Assembly: GCF_002386345.1 (NCBI RefSeq)
Contig: NZ_CP023507.1
Coordinates: forward strand, 1,240,001-1,304,000
Length of the DNA: 64,000 nucleotides
Reading direction: 5' to 3'
Source of the DNA: Streptococcus oralis
GTDB taxonomy: Bacteria; Bacillota; Bacilli; Lactobacillales; Streptococcaceae
Shown one piece after another: positions 54,901 through 64,000 of the stretch. The notes beneath the pieces were generated by a model, which worked only from the letters and a program-made list of their open reading frames with translations, made no database searches and was not told where the DNA came from. Positions within the stretch are counted from its first letter, which is position 1. Each line of letters starts with the position of its first letter. The position numbers and the translations under genes are program-made.

Positions 54901-55065
54901 TTATCTTACATTAACTATCTTACTTCTTTTTCAGAATTTTTTCAAAAATTTTGTCTGGAAATTTCAAACTGATTATCTGAATATGCCCCAAAAAAGAGAG
55001 GACTCTCATTCTACCATTATCCTATATTCATCTTACCTTTAGAAACCTTTGTTTTATTGCCCACA

Positions 55066-55107
55066 TATAAAAAATCAGATAATCCTAGTGACTACCTGAT
55101 TTTTTAT
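55066..55107 (-). terminator. Terminator after res
   Basis: Minus strand AAAAAATCAGGTAG-tcactagga-TTATCTGATTTTTT, near-perfect stem with a U run, 88 to 129 bases beyond the res stop. Confidence 0.7.
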
Positions 55108-55194
55108 GTTTTATAATCTATCTAATAAAACTACTATTGGAATTATTGAACAAAATACTTTCACATAGTAAATTATTATCGAGAAATCATCATA

Positions 55195-58100
55195 CTATTT
55201 CACTAAGCCCAGCAACTCCTCATAACTAGAAACAACGCCATAAATATATTGATCACTAATTAGTCCCGCCTTAACTAAAGCTTTAAAATGAACACGAGCA
55301 CAATCGATTTTACCTTTTTCAGATTGTTTTAATTGAAGACTAGACATAGAACCCTTGGTTTCTGCTACAAAATAGATATGCTTTACACTACCTTCTCTAA
55401 ATGCTATCGCCCAATCAGGATTGTAATCTCCAAGAGGTGTAGAAATTTTAAACTTCCCAGGTAGTTTTACATATACTCGAACATCCTCATACTGCTCTAA
55501 GGATTCTTTAAACTTACGCTCGATATCTGAATCCACCTTTACAAAGTTATAGATTCCCTTCGTAGATTCCAGCAAATGATCATCCGAAAGTTTCGCTGTT
55601 TCTGCATTATCGTAGAATAAATCCAAATCGTATTCATCTTCTAAAATATTGTATTGAATATGCTTGATTATTTGAGCTGCTTTTTGCTCATTAATCAACT
55701 TCGATACTTTTAAAATAAATTCTTCTGGGTTTTGTTTGAACTTTTCAAACTTATCAACTTTAATCTTACTCAGAATTTCTGCTACTACTTTACGAGTTAG
55801 ACCTGTATGATCTGCTACTTCTCCTAACAAATCATACTGAGTCGCAATTTGACTATTTTCGATATACTCCTGAGAACGAGCATTTTCTCCAACATCTAGT
55901 TTCAAACCTTCTTTTGTCATTTGATCTGCACTGGCTTGGGTAATATTGTACACTGGTTGACTGACCACTAGCTTCTCATTAATATAAGCAACAGACTGCT
56001 CTATTAGCTCAGTATCATCAAAAGTAACTTGATAAGCTGTTTTACGATTAATCTGATTCCAAAGTGACAAGAATTCTTTTCGAGCGATATTTTCTTTATT
56101 TACTTCCTCAGAGAACTGCACTGTTGTATTGTTTGCATTTTCGATCTCATATTTTCCAGGCTGGTAGATACTTTCAAGTACTTCAACAACTTGTTTCTCA
56201 AAGCCAGGAAGTGTATCTGATAAGTTCAACAGATTATTTTCCTTGGCAGTAAAATAATTTGCAGTCAGTTGACCTTTCTTATCAATATATCCCTGACTAA
56301 TCAAATCAAACTGAATGGACTCTGCCTGCTCTTTGGTGATTCTAACCTTTTCTCCTGCTTCGTTTTCGATTACTTTATTTTCAAATAAGGCAACATCAAC
56401 TTTTACAGGACGATCAGCTAACAACTCTTTCAACTCTGCTTGTAGCCCACGCGCAAATTGATCATAGCTTTCATTTGCAATGATAGTCAATTTGTTGATT
56501 TCATGGACTTCACTCTTTAAAAGTTCCGAATCTTGACGTACACCATCTTGATCCACGGCCAAACGCATCCCACGGCCAATCTCTTGTCGTTTCCGTGTCT
56601 CTGCTGATGACTTCTTTAAAGTACAGATTTGAAAAACATTGGGATTATCCCAACCTTCTTTTAAGGCTGAATGCGAGAATAGAAAGCGTACTGGTTCCTC
56701 GAAACTCAACAAACGTTCCTTATCTTTCATGATCAAATCATAGGCATCTTTATCATTTGATGAATTGCTTTTCTTTTCACTAGCAGATTTGTAATCCACA
56801 AATACCGTCTTATCTGACTTTTTCACTTTATCAACTGAAAAGTAACCCGCATGAACTGCATTGCCATCAAGATGAGATTCCAAATAACGATAATAAGAAG
56901 AGGGTTCTTGAGTCTGTAAGAATTGTCTAACTTGACTTTCATACTCATTTTCAAAGATTTGAGCATACTCCCCATTGTGAGGATCATTTTGTGCATCATA
57001 TTGCTTATATTTTGCAACCTCATCAATGAAGAAAAGAGAAAGAACCTTAATTCCACGATTATAAAGTCTACTTTCTTTCTCTAGGTGACTCTTAATGGTC
57101 TCACGAATTTGAATTCTCCGCATACTCGACTCATCCACTTCACCCATGACCTCTCCAACATATAATTCCTGCGTCGCTCCGACTTGGATTTTATTGTCTC
57201 TTGCGTTAAATTGACTCAATGTCATACCTTGATAGGAAGACAGATTACCCGATTCAGCATAAAGGTCAAAAGGTTCTTCAATTATCCTTGTTTTACGTTT
57301 TACGCCCGACTGAGTTCTTACCTCGAACTCTATCTTAGCCTTTGGAGAACCAGATTTCTGAGGAAGGAGTTCTTGCAAATACAGATAACCTTGTGTCCCA
57401 GTTGTTCCAGCTTGTTCGATAGCCTTCACCGCAATTTTCTTAACCAATTTTTGATTATAGGCATCCATGGCATCCAATCGATAAACCATGTCATACTTTT
57501 CTTTATGAGTAGCCGAATATCGAAGGGTAAAGAGAGGCTTAAAGTCTTTTAGTCGTTCTTTGGTCTGCTTACCTTCAACAGACTGGGGCTCGTCGATAAT
57601 CATGATTGGGTTCATGGCTGCTAATACGTCAATTGGACGACGCCAGCGAAAACTTTCCTGCTCTGCATGGATCCGTCTGGCATCTTTCCCTTTGGCATTA
57701 AAAGCCTGGGAGTTGATGACCATGATTTGGAGGTCCGACGAGTTAGCAAAACTATCTAGATCTCCTAGACGGGAGGAGTCATAGACAAAATAGCGTGGTT
57801 GCTTCCCATATTCCATCTGGAAGTGACTTGTCATAATCTGTAAAGACTTGAGAACCCCTTCACGTATAGCAACACTCGGAACAACAATAATAAACTTGAG
57901 CCAGCCATAGCGTTTATTTAGCTCCATAATGGTACGGATATAGGTATAGGTTTTCCCCGTTCCTGTCTCCATCTCTATAGAAAAATTGTAGGCTGGACGA
58001 TCTGCTACCATATCGACCGAAAGGATTTCAGAAGGTCGTAATCCCAAACGAGTTTGTACGGCATGAACATTGCTTCGAATAGCTTCCTGGTCCAATTGAA

Positions 58101-58269
58101 TCGGAGCATTTCGATAAGCATCCAATACCAAATCCACCTCATCTGACTTTTGACGACCTGGATCAGCCATATACCTGATTCCAGTTTGCTTGTTCTGCCC
58201 TTGAAATATGTCTGCAATGGCACTAACCGCATCCAATTGAAATTGTTGTTCTTTAAATTGTAGTTTCAT
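55195..58269 (-). CDS. res: Type III restriction enzyme Res subunit
   Basis: Res is the ATP-dependent cleavage subunit of type III R-M, which cuts DNA 25 to 27 bases from a site when two sites are inversely oriented. The 1024-aa sequence has helicase motifs: Walker A METGTGKTY near 98, DEPQS near 226, LRYSATH near 248, and QEIGRGMRL near 594. The C-terminus carries PDWAIAFREG and FVAETKG near 960-985, a PD-(D/E)xK nuclease. It needs Mod, whose gene carries a stop in this strain. It lies 138 bases after the TIR gene; normally res follows mod directly. Confidence 0.92.
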   Translation of the reverse strand: MKLQFKEQQFQLDAVSAIADIFQGQNKQTGIRYMADPGRQKSDEVDLVLDAYRNAPIQLDQEAIRSNVHAVQTRLGLRPSEILSVDMVADRPAYNFSIEMETGTGKTYTYIRTIMELNKRYGWLKFIIVVPSVAIREGVLKSLQIMTSHFQMEYGKQPRYFVYDSSRLGDLDSFANSSDLQIMVINSQAFNAKGKDARRIHAEQESFRWRRPIDVLAAMNPIMIIDEPQSVEGKQTKERLKDFKPLFTLRYSATHKEKYDMVYRLDAMDAYNQKLVKKIAVKAIEQAGTTGTQGYLYLQELLPQKSGSPKAKIEFEVRTQSGVKRKTRIIEEPFDLYAESGNLSSYQGMTLSQFNARDNKIQVGATQELYVGEVMGEVDESSMRRIQIRETIKSHLEKESRLYNRGIKVLSLFFIDEVAKYKQYDAQNDPHNGEYAQIFENEYESQVRQFLQTQEPSSYYRYLESHLDGNAVHAGYFSVDKVKKSDKTVFVDYKSASEKKSNSSNDKDAYDLIMKDKERLLSFEEPVRFLFSHSALKEGWDNPNVFQICTLKKSSAETRKRQEIGRGMRLAVDQDGVRQDSELLKSEVHEINKLTIIANESYDQFARGLQAELKELLADRPVKVDVALFENKVIENEAGEKVRITKEQAESIQFDLISQGYIDKKGQLTANYFTAKENNLLNLSDTLPGFEKQVVEVLESIYQPGKYEIENANNTTVQFSEEVNKENIARKEFLSLWNQINRKTAYQVTFDDTELIEQSVAYINEKLVVSQPVYNITQASADQMTKEGLKLDVGENARSQEYIENSQIATQYDLLGEVADHTGLTRKVVAEILSKIKVDKFEKFKQNPEEFILKVSKLINEQKAAQIIKHIQYNILEDEYDLDLFYDNAETAKLSDDHLLESTKGIYNFVKVDSDIERKFKESLEQYEDVRVYVKLPGKFKISTPLGDYNPDWAIAFREGSVKHIYFVAETKGSMSSLQLKQSEKGKIDCARVHFKALVKAGLISDQYIYGVVSSYEELLGLVK

Positions 58270-58407
58270 AATTTATTTTCTTCAATTCTTATCTTTTTCC
58301 AGTAATTATAAAGCACAATCACTTAATTAAATTATTTCAAATATCGTGAATCTTAATTAATATATCTCTTTGATATTTCCTATTTAGTTTATTACTAATA
58401 ATCTTAG

Positions 58408-58908
58408 CTACCATGTAGATGGTTTATGTGCAATAGCGCACTCTATTAATTCTTCCATTTTACTTTGAATATCTTCATAAACAAACTTTGAAGTAGAGAA
58501 TGGAGAATTATAGCATCGGACATAACTTGATAACGATTTGCCAGTTCGAGATAATACAAAATTATCAAATGGATTTCTTCCTTGATTACTTTGGTTTCCA
58601 AATCTATCCTTTAAATTATGAATATATATTCCTACTATACCTTTATTCAACTCAATCGCTTTTTTAATTTCATAGTTGATCCATTTACGTTCAGCAGTCT
58701 TCTCACCAATCAAAACAACCACACATGAACGCTTTGCCATTTGACTATCTATCCAAAATTTTATCATTGCATCAGATTTTAATTTTACTTCTTCCCAATC
58801 ATTATCAGAAAAAGTAGAATCACCTGATACTATACCCATATTTCTAACTTGAGATGCTCGCCAGTTATCATTGCCATAATGGAAGCTAAAAAATACTTGT
58901 CTTTTCAT
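58408..58908 (-). CDS. ThsB-like TIR-domain protein
   Basis: A 166-aa protein with the DUF1863/MTH538 TIR-like fold of Thoeris ThsB. It begins KRQVFFSFHYGNDNWRAS with the FFSFHY beta-strand typical of ThsB, contains VVVLIGEKTAERKWINYEI (residues 63-81, the second sheet and the helix after it; a Glu or similar in this area is catalytic in TIR NADases), and GIVGIYIHNLKD near 91. ThsB proteins make a signal nucleotide from NAD on phage infection, which a partner effector senses. No ThsA (SIR2-SLOG) gene is here. The preceding gene encodes a small membrane protein, 11 bases upstream. Confidence 0.78.
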   Translation of the reverse strand: MKRQVFFSFHYGNDNWRASQVRNMGIVSGDSTFSDNDWEEVKLKSDAMIKFWIDSQMAKRSCVVVLIGEKTAERKWINYEIKKAIELNKGIVGIYIHNLKDRFGNQSNQGRNPFDNFVLSRTGKSLSSYVRCYNSPFSTSKFVYEDIQSKMEELIECAIAHKPSTW

Positions 58909-58919
58909 AATTCCCTCAC

Positions 58920-59312
58920 TTATCTAACAACAACTATAAGAATCAATGTAGAAATAACTATTAAACCATAGGTATACTTTAAAATTGGACGAAAAAGTGT
59001 TATCAGAAGATCTCCCTCTTCTCTTTTTGGAGTCATTCTAAAATCTGTTTCTTTATCACTTAATCTTACTTCATCGTATAAACATCTATACTGTCGTTCT
59101 AGTAACAAGTAATAAGCATCATGAAACCAAAACAATATAGTTACAAACAAAATTAAAAGAAGTATATACCACATACTAGTATTACTAAACCAAAATGCAA
59201 ATAAGGCACCTATGGAAGTGAACGACCATCCTTTAACGACAAAAGAATTCTTACCCATCCGTTCAATGATAGCTTGTATCATCTCTAAATGTTTTACTTT
59301 GTGTTCACTCAT
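58920..59312 (-). CDS. Small multi-TM protein of the TIR module
   Basis: A 130-aa protein with two adjacent membrane helices (about residues 28-44 and 46-64), a soluble middle section (HDAYYLLLERQYRCLYDEVRLSD at about 65-85) and a C-terminal helix (about 111-128). I do not recognise a named family with certainty, though related small membrane proteins occur beside TIR genes. Its ATG begins 3 bases after the mod stop, so translation is coupled to mod. It could be the pore-forming effector of a TIR signal system. Confidence 0.65.
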   Translation of the reverse strand: MSEHKVKHLEMIQAIIERMGKNSFVVKGWSFTSIGALFAFWFSNTSMWYILLLILFVTILFWFHDAYYLLLERQYRCLYDEVRLSDKETDFRMTPKREEGDLLITLFRPILKYTYGLIVISTLILIVVVR

Positions 59313-59315
59313 AGT

Positions 59316-61220
59316 CTACACTACCTTCACTTTCGTATTAGGTGATAATTCCTTAAATATTTCACTTACGTTAATTTTATCTGCTGAATTGGCAAATGAG
59401 CTATCACGGAAAACAGCACGGAGTGGTTGTTCTTGCGCAATGTATCGGATGACTTCTTCCGATATATCATCTTCAAAGCAGGCCATAAGGGAACCCTGAT
59501 CTACATCATAGACTTCTGCTCCTGCTACATTCTTCAAATCAATCGCTAAGGATAATTCCATTCCCCATGTCAACATAACTTGGAAGAGCAAATCAAGTCC
59601 AGAACGTCCTTCCTTGATATTGGATACACTATCAAAAAGTTCCCCTTGGATGAATTGATCTGGTCGAGCTAAAACATCCTTGAAATTTGAAGAGTCTAGT
59701 TTGTAAGCTTTAAAACCAAAGTCTTGCTTGCCAACCAACTCTGGGTGTTCTTCCTGAATCTTTGCAGCAGCACGACGAATCCGCTCACGCGAAATCTGAT
59801 CGATAGTTTCATATCCAGCTTCTTTCGCAGCAGACTTTTCAGCTACTTCCTCATCTAAAGTACACAAGATAAACTTACGGTTGCCTCCATCTTCCGCATT
59901 CAGTTGCATGACTGCATCAGCTGTCGTAGCAGAACCACCAAAAAAGTCTAAGATTAATTCCCCACCTAAAGTCCCATATTTACTGAATTTTTTTATCAAT
60001 TCTACTGGTTTAGGATAATCAAATACTTTTTGACCATCAAATAAATTCATAATTTCTGAAGTTCCGGTTTTAGTAGTACCAACATCTAAAAATAAAGAGC
60101 TAGGTGTTTTTTTGTCTCCCTTTGAAATTCTTTCTTCATAGTATAATTTTCGTTTTGGAGCAGAAGTATCATTAACACCAAATTTGATTCTCCCCTCTTC
60201 CATCAATTTAGACATTGTCTCTCTATTATATGCCCAAATTCTTCCATTTGGTGGATAGTACTCCTCACCTGTATAGGGATTCAATATCGGATAAACTGTG
60301 TCTCCTCCAATATGATTAGCATCAAGCGGCACTAACTTCCATGGCCCTCTAGGATCATTGTCCGGATTTGAATATCCATTTTTATCAATATCATCACCAC
60401 CAAAAATTAGGTTCGATCGATTTTTGGAATAAATTAAGTTATGGTTATGATTCCATGATATTTCACCATCATTTGAGATCGATGTCCTAGACTGCCAAAT
60501 TACATTAGCAACAAAATTCTCCTCCCCAAATATCTCATCACACATAACTTTTAGGTTCGCTTGTTCATTATCATCTATGGAAATAAAGATGACACCTGAA
60601 TCCTTGAGGAGGTTACGCGCTAGACGAAGGCGTGGATACATCATATTTAGCCAGTCTGAGTGATAGCGAGCCGAAGTCTTTTCATTTGGTCGTAAACCAA
60701 TAACTTGGCGTCCTTCTTCATCCAAAAGCTCCATATCTTCCTTCAACTCTTCATCTGTTTTTTGGAACTTATCAGAATATACAAAGTCTTTCCCTGTATT
60801 ATAAGGTGGATCGATATAAATCATATCGATTTTTCCGAGATAGGATTCTTGTAAGATTTTCAAGACTTCTAAGTTATCCCCAGTGATAAAGATATTTTCA
60901 CTCTTATCAAAGTCAACACTCTCATCAAGGTCTGGTCGTAAGGTTTTGGTAGTAGGTCGTCCAGCTTCTGCGATGGCTTCACGCTTTCAAACCCAGGTAA
61001 AGTCATAGGACTCCCTTCCATCAACAATTTCCTCTGATAAAAACTGTTTCAGTTTCTCAAAGTCAATTGCAGGGCGAAGTCTTCCGTGTTTATCTCTTTT
61101 TTCTGTTAAAACTTCTGGAAAGAGTTGGCCAATTTTTGAAATATTATCTGTGAAAACATCTCTGGAGCCTACTTTTAAAAGATAGAGGCCGGTATGTTCA
61201 CCTTTGTATTGTTCTGTCAT
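59316..61220 (-). pseudogene. mod: Type III methyltransferase Mod with in-frame TGA at codon 78
   Basis: A 634-codon gene for the m6A methyltransferase/recognition subunit, broken by TGA at 60987-60989. Codon 77 ends ...YDFTWV, then TGA, then KREAIAEAGRPTTKTLRP; homologues read TW-P/V-GK, so Gly (GGA) to TGA is a one-base change. Residues after it contain the ITGDNLEVLK segment, motif IV DPPYNTG near 141, motif I DFFGGSATTADAVM and a central target-recognition domain (about 220-400). A restart TTG at 60863 gives a 515-aa product beginning before DPPY, which lacks the first 119 residues. Unless readthrough occurs, Mod is inactive. Confidence 0.85.
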
Positions 61221-61250
61221 ATGTAACCTTTCTTATAATGGTTTCTGTGT

Positions 61251-61271
61251 ACTTGTCTATAGTATACAAGT
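61251..61271. promoter_or_regulatory. Inverted repeat ahead of mod
   Basis: ACTTGT and ACAAGT (6 bases each) around 9 bases. It lies in the 56-base gap between DUF4391 and mod with TATACT on the minus strand in its middle, resembling a regulator-bound promoter. Confidence 0.4.
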
Positions 61272-61276
61272 AATCC

Positions 61277-61951
61277 TTATTCTAATTCTTGGATTTGTTT
61301 AAGAACTGCCTGGTAGTCTTTCTTTACTTCCATCTGCTTTCTCATCGATTTTTCTGTATACATTTGTTTCTTAAGACGTTGAGCTTGCTTTTCCAGCTTT
61401 TCTAGCTGTTCAGTCAGTTCAACCGATTCTTTCAAGTTATCTCCCAACTTACTTTGAAGCTGGTCTTTCCCTGTTTCCTTAATCAGCATTTCATAAACTT
61501 GATCTAAGTCATTGCCTTCAAATTGGATCTGGCAATCCTCTTGTGTACGGAAACAACGGACAATTTTGAAATGTCTTCCATCTTTTTCTTGTGCCAGAGC
61601 TTCCTTGTAATGAATCAAGAGCTCTTCCTTTCCCAAAGGAAACTTAAGAATAAAGACTGTATAAAGACCAAGTCGTTCATCTAGTTTTTCTAGCAAACTG
61701 GTTGTAAACTCTTGATGATTAAGGTGAATTTCTAAGACTAAGATCTGCTTAACGATGTTTCCCACAGGAATATTCGTCGTTTGCAAATCTATTTGGTGGG
61801 TAATCTGAATGAGTTGAATCTGATCTCGTAATTCTTGCTTTTCCTGTTTGCTCAGAGCTAGGTTATCAAAAAAATCACGATTGCCCTTTTTATGGGGTCT
61901 GTAGAGCACATGAGGAGTTGGCAAACAAGTATAATCAGGAAACTGTATCAT
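61277..61951 (-). CDS. DUF4391 family protein
   Basis: A 224-aa cytosolic protein of the DUF4391 family, regularly found between a SNF2-type helicase and a type III mod gene. It has no catalytic motif I can name. The C-terminal 55 residues form a coiled-coil (LTEQLEKLEKQAQRLKKQM near 177). It overlaps the helicase gene by 17 bases and precedes mod by 56. Likely a subunit or adaptor of the helicase-Mod complex; function is unknown. Confidence 0.85.
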   Translation of the reverse strand: MIQFPDYTCLPTPHVLYRPHKKGNRDFFDNLALSKQEKQELRDQIQLIQITHQIDLQTTNIPVGNIVKQILVLEIHLNHQEFTTSLLEKLDERLGLYTVFILKFPLGKEELLIHYKEALAQEKDGRHFKIVRCFRTQEDCQIQFEGNDLDQVYEMLIKETGKDQLQSKLGDNLKESVELTEQLEKLEKQAQRLKKQMYTEKSMRKQMEVKKDYQAVLKQIQELE

Positions 61952-64000
61952 AACTTTCTCCTTTTAGCAGGGCAAAGAAACAAATAAGTTCAAAGTCATC
62001 CATCCCCTCAATGCCGGTATTCATCAAATTAACCGTTCCAAAATTGAAAAGTGCATCCATGGTAGACAGATGATCCTGTTCCATCAGTTGTTCAATAGCC
62101 TGCTGTAATAGCTTGGAATATCCAGACATCTCTTTCCCGTCTTTTGTTTGACGGTTATACTGATTCACCAGAGATTGCAATGGTTGCGTCTTGCCACGAC
62201 ATAGACTTCCCAATAGATCTAAAATCTTTTTGCTCTCTTCCGGAGAAACCACCAAATCTCCTGCACTATTTACATAGAGGATATAATATGGATGAAGTTG
62301 ATTCTTCTGATTCTTACCTCTAAGTTCGTCTTTATTTTTTAAAACAAAGATTGCTCCTTCTGCTTCCTTATTCTCAACTGACAAGATGGCTTGCAGACCT
62401 TTTGGTACTTTTTCCAATTCAGGATGGCTTTCGAGATACTTCAGAAGATCCATTCGGTAGTCTTCCAATCCTAGATCCATGATGGATATCCCTTCACTCA
62501 TCTCTTCTAAATCGACAACTTCATTTCTAAGACGCTCTAGTTGTTTCTTACGATAGTTATTATCTTCTATCTCTTCACTAGAAAGAACGTTATCATCTGC
62601 GGTAGATGTGAGGACGGATATTTTCATACGTGATTCAACACGAGATTTAAGATCGATGTATTCATCTAACTCAATATTGGGCCAAAAGTTTACAAGCTGA
62701 ATAAACTTATTTTTACTCCCTATCCGATCCACACGTCCAAAACGTTGAATGATCCGAACAGGATTCCAATGAATATCGTAATTGACCATCATGTCTGCAT
62801 CCTGCAGGTTTTGTCCTTCAGAAATAACATCTGTTGCAATCAAGACATCAATCTCTCTTTGATCATCCGGAAATAGGAGATTCCTATCTTTTGATTGTGG
62901 TGAAAAATAAGTCAAAAGGGAATTGAGGTCTCGATGGTTCGTTTTTAGCGTTGTTTCAAATCCTTTTGTACCAGAAATCTGTGCCGTATGAAGTCCGTAT
63001 TTATCTAGTACATATTGGCTAATATGTTTATAGAGATAATTAGTGGTCGTCGCAAAGGCAGAAAAGATAATGAGTTTTTTGTTGCCTTCATTGATTGGAT
63101 GAGTCATTTTTTCGTCAATCAGCTGATAGAGTGTTTGCAATTTTTTATCTTCTGCAGGAGTGATTTGATCGATCAGTTCTTCTAATTCCAGCAAAATTGC
63201 TTGATCTTTCTCTAACTCCAATTTCCAACTGCGATAGTCCATATCTTTCAAAGCTATTCTATTCTTCTTCCCGATAAAGACATCTAAGTTGCTATCTTCT
63301 AAATCAAAATCATCTTCATTTAAAACGGGCACTCCAGATAAATCATCTAAACCTGTTCGCTCATATGTTGAAATAGCTTTTAAAGTCTCATCTACATATG
63401 ATTTAACGACATCGATTAGGGTATAACGAAAAGCTGCCACAGAACTTTCCAAGCGTTTAAGCAGATTGATCATCATCAGCTTTTTCATGCCCGACTCACG
63501 ACCCAGTTGAGTCAGATTGGCTTTATTCCCTGATAATGTTATTTCGTATTTATCACGCTTTGAGGGATAGATATAAAGTGAAGGTTGGTAAATAGTTAAC
63601 TGTAGCTGATCTAACAACTGGTATAACTTTTTATAGGTCACATCTAGATCAGACACTGTCAAATCAGGTTCAAAGTTTCTTGGTTTCAGACGTTCTGGAA
63701 AATCTCCAATTGCTTTTCGATCATAAAATTCTCGGATGTGTTTACGACTACGAGCAATCGTCACACTATCCAGAACTTTAAAGAAATCAAAGTCTAAAGT
63801 CGATAATAGTTTATCTGTCGTTCGCTCTTCAGCTGGTAAATCTGCCCATTTGTTATAGGCCAACTGAGCATTCCGAAAAATATCATTAATGGACGACTGT
63901 GTATCTAATTTTCCATCTATTTGCTCTACATCCCCTTCATAGGCTAAAGCGATTTGATTTTTTAGATCATTAAAGCGATTATTAACTGGAGTGGCTGATA
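61935..64000 (-). CDS. SNF2/DEAD-type helicase of the type III R-M island (partial)
   Basis: The 3' part of a large helicase gene that runs off the window's right end; the reading frame is open to position 64000. The last bases read SATPVNN (motif III) at the window edge, so motifs I and II lie outside. Motifs V and VI are seen: ATDVISEGQNLQDADMMVNY and RIIQRFGRVDRIGS, typical of the SNF2/RapA-like superfamily 2. The middle portion (about residues 100-250 from 63863) is a helical insertion. It starts the operon helicase-DUF4391-mod-TM-TIR-res. It is the helicase partner of type III-like systems. Confidence 0.85.
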   Translation of the reverse strand, partial: SATPVNNRFNDLKNQIALAYEGDVEQIDGKLDTQSSINDIFRNAQLAYNKWADLPAEERTTDKLLSTLDFDFFKVLDSVTIARSRKHIREFYDRKAIGDFPERLKPRNFEPDLTVSDLDVTYKKLYQLLDQLQLTIYQPSLYIYPSKRDKYEITLSGNKANLTQLGRESGMKKLMMINLLKRLESSVAAFRYTLIDVVKSYVDETLKAISTYERTGLDDLSGVPVLNEDDFDLEDSNLDVFIGKKNRIALKDMDYRSWKLELEKDQAILLELEELIDQITPAEDKKLQTLYQLIDEKMTHPINEGNKKLIIFSAFATTTNYLYKHISQYVLDKYGLHTAQISGTKGFETTLKTNHRDLNSLLTYFSPQSKDRNLLFPDDQREIDVLIATDVISEGQNLQDADMMVNYDIHWNPVRIIQRFGRVDRIGSKNKFIQLVNFWPNIELDEYIDLKSRVESRMKISVLTSTADDNVLSSEEIEDNNYRKKQLERLRNEVVDLEEMSEGISIMDLGLEDYRMDLLKYLESHPELEKVPKGLQAILSVENKEAEGAIFVLKNKDELRGKNQKNQLHPYYILYVNSAGDLVVSPEESKKILDLLGSLCRGKTQPLQSLVNQYNRQTKDGKEMSGYSKLLQQAIEQLMEQDHLSTMDALFNFGTVNLMNTGIEGMDDFELICFFALLKGESYDTVS

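What the first reader, a model, noticed from the sequence alone, without database searches (positions are those of the whole stretch)
58408..59312. TIR plus small membrane protein nested in a type III R-M operon
Seen: between mod and res (normally adjacent) stand two genes, a 130-aa protein with about three TM helices (start 3 bases after the mod stop) and a 166-aa ThsB-like TIR protein (11 bases later), with 138 AT-rich bases before res. Known: ThsB-type TIRs make NAD-derived signals that activate a partner effector; type III R-M adjoining genes are usually only mod and res. Inference: the pair is a minimal TIR-signal/pore-effector defence system, possibly with the small TM protein as effector in place of ThsA, nested in an R-M island so both are spread together and R-M failure triggers abortive response. 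This is the strongest candidate for an undescribed system here.
Basis: partly seen in the sequence, partly recalled or inferred. Interest (0 to 1): 0.78.

Follow-up and report, generated by a model that had tools for sequence, protein, structure and literature searches.

The report
TIR–membrane defence pair inside restriction operon
Between the two genes of a streptococcal DNA-restriction system sits a compact two-gene cassette, a TIR-type signalling enzyme and a small membrane protein; the same membrane protein also sits beside several kinds of TIR enzyme in other bacteria and archaea, and the pair looks like a minimal cell-suicide device against phages.

Summary
The 166-aa protein is a ThsB-type TIR with an invariant Glu (E80). 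The 130-aa partner is a helical membrane protein that PADLOC already lists, uncharacterised, as PDC-M50A, so the pair is catalogued. M50A is a broad TIR partner: 49 of 60 M50A genes examined lie beside, or one gene from, a TIR of at least six PADLOC classes, mostly with no R-M gene within 2 kb by my probes, in bacteria and archaea; partner class changes repeatedly on the M50A tree. Best reading: a Thoeris-like module (TIR makes an NAD-derived signal, M50A perturbs the membrane); signal, membrane damage and defence are inferred. M50A lacks SIR2, SLOG and macro domains, so it is not a ThsA. The mod–res junction of this R-M family is a cargo slot in Streptococcus: of 27 loci, 23 carry cargo (SLATT_5, 1-TM proteins, Abi_alpha-like, FRG, M50+TIR), 3 are empty, 1 has a remnant. 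The window's mod has an in-frame stop; the pair is intact. Against: 11 M50A genes lack an intact TIR neighbour, including four near-identical solo genes and two in Streptomyces; no activity was tested.

The parts
58920..59312 (-). M50A: 130-aa small membrane protein (PADLOC PDC-M50A), proposed effector
   Evidence: PDLC04685 E 3.6e-69 over 1-130/130; AlphaFold pLDDT 92.1, pTM 0.80, helices 3-43, 49-84, 102-106, 109-129; R18, W29, F61, E72, R76 identical in 50 of 50 aligned relatives
58408..58908 (-). M50B: 166-aa ThsB-type TIR protein, proposed signal-making sensor
   Evidence: PF08937 E 1.5e-25; PDLC00433 ThsB 9.2e-75, PDC-M50B 6.7e-69; Foldseek 8wcf EcThsB 1.6e-15; E80 invariant in 14 of 14 aligned TIRs
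58270..58407 (.). 138-base A+T-rich spacer before res
   Evidence: 81% A+T; promoter-like sites over 55000-62000 not above shuffles, 20 found against 23.9 expected
59316..60863 (-). mod, main part of the type III methyltransferase
   Evidence: PF01555 1.7e-34; MTase_III PDLC03634 3.2e-184, matched from profile position 106 on
60987..61220 (-). N-terminal 77 codons of mod, ended by an in-frame stop; relatives without this stop exist
55195..58269 (-). res, type III restriction subunit
   Evidence: REase_III 3.5e-295; PF19778, PF04851
61277..61951 (-). DUF4391 protein upstream on the same strand
   Evidence: PF14335 1.9e-18
61935..63998 (-). Helicase-like gene upstream (runs off the window)
   Evidence: open ORF, same order in S. 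mitis L002; the name helicase is by eye, not from a family search

Best explanation
The two genes are a portable anti-phage cassette of the PADLOC candidate type PDC-M50. The TIR protein acts as the infection sensor and, once activated, uses NAD to make a small nucleotide signal (inferred from its ThsB class and invariant Glu). M50A is the effector: a three-helix membrane protein whose conserved charged part near the membrane (R18, K27, D65, E72, R76) receives the signal, or the activated TIR, and permeabilises the membrane, stopping the infected cell (inferred). The cassette sits in the mod-res slot of a type III R-M operon, where streptococci hold alternative effector-like cargos; the R-M genes give location and probably co-transcription, not the trigger. 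Shown here: families, predicted fold, pairing, partner changes, slot. Inferred: signal, membrane damage, phage defence.
For: 49 of 60 M50A genes have a TIR next door or one gene away. Of 42 tabulated pairs, 38 of the 41 on one strand overlap or lie within 60 bp, in both orders (24 M50A-TIR, 17 TIR-M50A). Partners fall in 4 BLAST clusters and at least 6 PADLOC classes (ThsB/M50B, PDLC00428, 00430, 00426, 00422, SpbK-like); the 50-row M50A tree needs 16 changes among 7 labels, 'no TIR' being one (least possible 6). What stays constant is TIR plus M50A, as expected if TIR chemistry is the link. E80 invariant in 14 of 14. HIT genes lie beside M50A in 6 loci; the two tested match PADLOC ThsC2, which fits a nucleotide signal. 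Precedent: TM-macro ThsA of type II Thoeris perturbs membranes on a TIR signal (PMC12847820 Discussion).
Against: 11 of 60 M50A genes have no intact TIR beside them: 4 near-identical solo genes in a methylase/ATPase locus (L066, L067, L068, L070), 2 Streptomyces (L003, L035), L039, 2 beside transposase or recombinase genes (L030, L043), 1 with a 76-aa TIR remnant (L069), 1 at a contig edge (L071). Partner labels are more clustered on the tree than shuffled ones (16 against mean 25.9, 0 of 200 as low), so swaps are fewer than free mixing. No nucleotide-binding domain is recognised in M50A. No solved structure matches its fold clearly. No phage, NAD or membrane data exist here.
Confidence: 0.6

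Rival explanations
1. The TIR is itself the killer (an NADase that drains NAD), and M50A is the membrane anchor, sensor or inhibitor that controls it.
For: SpbK, whose relatives pair with M50A (PDLC03825 1.5e-19 to 4e-24 in the three tested), is an NADase that inhibits growth with its trigger and no other gene of its element (PMC12847820). M50A has no known ligand domain.
Against: Solo M50A genes persist without a TIR found nearby (L066, L067, L068, L070), odd for an anchor or inhibitor. One control protein would have to recognise at least six TIR classes.
Confidence: 0.2
2. Guard of the R-M system: the pair stays quiet while Mod/Res work and kills when restriction is inhibited, as PrrC does in type I operons (PrrC recalled, no call).
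For: Nesting in the window and S. mitis, and R-M-type genes close to other pairs (for example L058, L059, L061).
Against: 35 of 52 loci have no R-M-type gene within 2 kb by my probes; plasmid loci L031, L033, L034, L036, L038, L040, L042, L044 and L045 have none annotated in the fetched stretch (that gene table is incomplete). mod interrupted but pair intact in the window; R-M remnants and intact pair in L028.
Confidence: 0.1
3. Passenger genes: the mod-res junction merely tolerates insertions, and the pair has no defence role in this host.
For: Very mixed cargo at the junction.
Against: Low dN/dS against S. mitis (0.24, 0.17), tight TIR-M50A coupling elsewhere, and several cargo families are defence or effector candidates (SLATT_5, PDC-S15/FRG, PDC-S32).
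Confidence: 0.1

Closest known systems
PDC-M50 (PADLOC-DB 2.0.0 candidate, models M50A and M50B)
   Same: Both proteins match over full length; two adjacent genes
   Different: A candidate without a mechanism in what I could read; only one M50B model appeared in my hits, whereas M50A pairs here with at least six PADLOC TIR classes
Thoeris type II (ThsB TIR + TM-macro ThsA)
   Same: TIR of the ThsB family with a membrane partner in one operon; a HIT gene, ThsC-like in the two tested, beside M50A in 6 loci
   Different: M50A is 130 aa without macro, SIR2 or SLOG domain; the TIR resembles EcThsB and BcThsB, and EcThsB2 (8v6t) ranks far lower (E 0.11)
SpbK (B. subtilis TIR NADase)
   Same: SpbK-like TIRs are partners of M50A in five streptococcal loci (three tested, L009, L010, L012; L011 by clustering; L013 by eye)
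   Different: SpbK inhibits growth without another gene of its element; these partners also show weak REase_II matches in their N-terminal part
SLATT_5 membrane effectors
   Same: Small membrane proteins that occupy the same mod-res slot in 7 of 27 loci
   Different: No sequence relation found: hhalign probability 0.3%

Membership tests
PDC-M50 (PADLOC candidate) | M50A protein | tested here: met
   PDLC04685 3.6e-69
PDC-M50 (PADLOC candidate) | M50B protein adjacent | tested here: met
   PDLC04688 6.7e-69, 11 bases away
Thoeris | ThsB TIR protein with the catalytic-position Glu | tested here: met
   PF08937 1.5e-25, 8wcf/9b7d/6lhy, E80 invariant in 14 of 14; that E80 is the catalytic Glu is recalled TIR knowledge; activity not tested
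Thoeris | ThsA effector with SIR2-SLOG or TM-macro in the operon | tested here: not met
   the partner shows no such domain in Pfam or NCBIfam and no third gene lies between mod and res
Thoeris | NAD-derived signal activates the effector | not testable with these tools
   needs biochemistry
SLATT effectors | Match to a SLATT profile | tested here: inconclusive
   no SLATT among the 25 families shown of 29 matched by 48 M50A members at E<=10; hhalign against SLATT_5 0.3%; the other SLATT families were not compared by profile
DUF2270/DUF3278 membrane proteins | Profile match above cut-off | tested here: inconclusive
   11 and 18 of 48 members match weakly (best 8.4e-5 and 4.4e-4); the scores I saw are below the cut-offs
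Type III R-M | mod and res in one operon | tested here: met
   same strand, families; co-transcription not tested
Type III R-M | uninterrupted mod frame | tested here: not met
   in-frame stop after 77 codons

The most novel reading that the evidence does not exclude
M50A is a general receptor and membrane effector for TIR-made nucleotide signals, defining a further Thoeris-like type that swaps TIR sensors (including SpbK-like ones, so M50A is a candidate receptor for N1-cADPR), and the streptococcal mod-res junction is a dedicated slot in which such effector cassettes are exchanged to arm an R-M operon with a second line of defence.
Probability: 0.35. Interest if true: 0.8.

Novelty: new variant of a known kind. 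Interest (0 to 1): 0.62.

Why it matters
TIR enzymes signal through different nucleotides to different effectors; one 130-aa membrane protein that works with many TIR classes would be a very small TIR effector and a handle on which signal each TIR makes. The SpbK paper leaves the receptor of N1-cADPR open (PMC12847820 Discussion); M50A beside SpbK-like TIRs is a testable candidate. The mod-res slot gives a simple place to look for further effectors: among the cargos tested, L085, L087 and L095 (1-TM family) matched no PADLOC or Pfam model at E<=0.01, and L077 and L079 only weakly.

Tried and rejected

Literature: ten searches of an open PMC library. The name PDC-M50 gave 0 papers. For genes between mod and res I saw only the listing (14 papers) and opened none of them, so I cannot say the slot is unreported. 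The Payne 2024 preprint is not held and was not read; I saw it only in reference lists.

Full report
Observation. The anatomy is as reported: mod, 3 bases, a 130-aa ORF, 11 bases, a 166-aa ORF, 138 A+T-rich bases, res, all on the minus strand of a 2.05-Mb, one-contig genome. In S. mitis a 607-aa mod ORF is listed, with a pentanucleotide repeat shortly upstream of that ORF's start; modS of S. suis is phase variable through a pentanucleotide repeat (PMC8125046, passages). The window's mod start shows no tandem repeat.

TIR protein. PF08937 ThsB_TIR 1.5e-25, PADLOC ThsB 9.2e-75. By sequence and by predicted fold (pLDDT 85.4) the nearest solved structures are EcThsB 8wcf and ThsB 9b7d/6lhy; EcThsB2 (8v6t), which has an unusual active-site Tyr (PMC11204291 section 11), ranks far lower (E 0.11). 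E80 in W-I-N-Y-E is invariant in 14 of 14 aligned partner TIRs. That this is the catalytic Glu is recalled TIR knowledge, not a test. It is the one PF08937 match at E<=0.001 in the genome.

M50A. PADLOC PDC-M50A over its full length. No Pfam family reaches its cut-off in the window protein; weak, repeated similarity to DUF3278 (18 of 48 members) and DUF2270 (11 of 48) was seen. AlphaFold is confident (pLDDT 92.1): long helix 3-43, helix 49-84, C-terminal helix 109-129. R18, W29, F61, E72 and R76 are identical in 50 of 50 aligned relatives, D65 and Y79 in 49, K27 in 48. Conserved charges near the membrane suggest a sensing or gating part; this is inference. No PDB or viral structure is a convincing match.

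Spread and pairing. M50A was found in 10 of 335 genomes of the window's family and 11 of 398 Bacillota genomes (own genome counted in both; one of the 11 is a weak hit with stops, L055), in 23 (window query) or 115 (distant query) of 72,556 plasmid records, 15 IMG/VR loci and 0 of 50,697 phage records. I examined the neighbours of 60 M50A genes in 59 loci (window, L002, L003, L014-L045, L057-L074, L132-L137). Dropped: L075, a duplicate of L002; L055, not fetched further; and 6 of the 23 records and 109 of the 115, not opened (the listing showed 25 of the 115). A TIR-class protein is the next gene, or one gene away, in 49 of 60; in a few (L011, L013 and most viral loci) this rests on clustering, sequence by eye or my own TIR profile rather than a library hit. 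All 15 viral-contig loci are paired. The 11 others are listed under evidence against; for them only the fetched stretch and mostly one TIR profile were searched. Hosts with a pair include Bacillota, Pseudomonadota, Campylobacterota, Thermodesulfobacteriota, Deinococcota, Actinomycetota and Haloarchaea. In the 42 pairs tabulated (of the 49; L013 and L132-L137 were left out) gene order varies (24 M50A-TIR, 17 TIR-M50A, 1 on opposite strands) but spacing is tight (38 of 41 within 60 bp or overlapping).

Partner changes. The 42 TIRs form 4 BLAST clusters of 29, 8, 4 and 1 and, by PADLOC, at least six classes, including SpbK-like TIRs in streptococci. On a 50-row M50A tree the seven labels (six partner classes and 'no TIR') need 16 changes; the least possible is 6, shuffled labels give a mean of 25.9 and none of 200 was as low. 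So partners are partly inherited and partly exchanged. Starred branches alone force at least 5 changes for the ThsB label, 4 for PDLC00430 and 3 for PDLC00428; the last is no more clustered than chance. The supported 9-row clade around the window holds four partner classes. Labels came from PADLOC hits and, for some rows (L007, L008, L034 and several ThsB rows), from similarity; L028 has a long branch. The same small membrane protein has thus been re-paired with unlike TIRs several times, which favours a shared signal over one fixed protein contact, without proving it.

HIT gene. In 6 loci (L003, L022, L035, L036, L041, L137) a HIT-like protein lies beside M50A; the two tested match PADLOC ThsC2 (2.5e-18, 2.3e-18). 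A nucleotide hydrolase fits a nucleotide-signal pathway.

The mod-res slot. res relatives (E<=1e-100) occur in 27 of 247 genomes of the genus, the window's included. At the junction: empty, with 3 bases between mod stop and res ATG, in 3 (L088, L089, L102); M50A+TIR in 2 (window, S. mitis); SLATT_5-type in 7 (L084 and L086 by Pfam, five by clustering); a 1-TM family in 8 (two of them, L095 and L096, with a second cargo beside it); Abi_alpha-like in 4 (a sub-threshold Pfam match on L077, the rest by clustering); DUF6261 in 2, plus a remnant by eye in L101; FRG/PDC-S15 in 1 (L090); PDC-S32 in 1 (L092). That is 23 loci with cargo, 3 empty and 1 remnant; in L090 and L096 mod was not seen within the 1.5-kb stretch. 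Hydropathy finds TM segments in cargo of 15 of the 23. In one search, 48 of 378 Bacillota genomes had a res match at E<=1e-60; the 29 loci handed out besides the window's were read: 22 have no ORF of 100 aa or more in the junction, 5 do (four RhuM-like by eye, one 248-aa ORF; mod not seen in L129) and 2 (L122, L131) were not informative. The loci are not independent, so the Fisher value is only indicative.

Exchange. Between the window and S. mitis the pair is 89-90% identical in DNA while res as a whole is 76%, but the elevated block also takes in the mod 3' end and the first part of res: this fits exchange by homologous recombination in the flanks, not a cassette that jumps by itself.

R-M coupling. 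R-M-type genes lie within 2 kb in 17 of 52 loci by a 14-protein probe set (L075 dropped; a lower bound, and some loci have short flanks), plus the window. In L028 a short ORF that looks by eye like fused mod and res remnants lies upstream of an intact pair, and in the window mod is interrupted. The pair therefore does not seem to depend on a working R-M system.

Mechanism and standing. The best-supported model is a Thoeris-like TIR-signal/membrane-effector module (confidence 0.6). It would work like type II Thoeris (His-ADPR and TM-macro ThsA; PMC12847820, abstract, passages and the whole Discussion; PMC11204291, passages and section 11) but is not a Thoeris member by the ThsA criterion. Other papers seen as passages only: PMC7272460, PMC12813430, PMC11514479, PMC12322248, PMC12988326, PMC13356809, PMC8125046; all others as listings.

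Noticed in passing
window 60863-61220: mod carries an in-frame stop after 77 codons although the downstream pair and res are intact; the R-M system may be off in this strain (or the stop is a sequencing error).
   Followed up: partly
L076-L102, junction upstream of res: Interchangeable cargo slot between mod and res in Streptococcus: SLATT_5, 1-TM family, Abi_alpha-like, DUF6261, FRG, PDC-S32 or M50+TIR.
   Followed up: yes
L003, L022, L035, L036, L041, L137: HIT-like gene (PADLOC ThsC2 match in the two tested) beside M50A; in L003 and L035 (Streptomyces) I found no TIR in the fetched stretch, though not every TIR class was searched.
   Followed up: partly
L066, L067, L068, L070: Near-identical solo M50A genes in loci with large methyltransferase-like and ATPase-like genes (DUF1156/DUF499-like by eye; L067 and L068 show only part) without a TIR found; possibly M50A used by another defence system.
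   Followed up: no
L009-L013: M50A paired with about 470-490-aa SpbK-like TIR proteins, with C5-methylase genes within 2 kb (as L060-L064); candidate receptor for N1-cADPR.
   Followed up: partly
L002 5035-5073: Pentanucleotide repeat shortly upstream of the listed S. mitis mod ORF, as in phase-variable mod genes.
   Followed up: no
L132; E. coli records: A near relative of the Klebsiella M50A-TIR pair occurs in 23 of 5426 complete E. coli genomes (17 places on plasmids, 6 on chromosomes).
   Followed up: no
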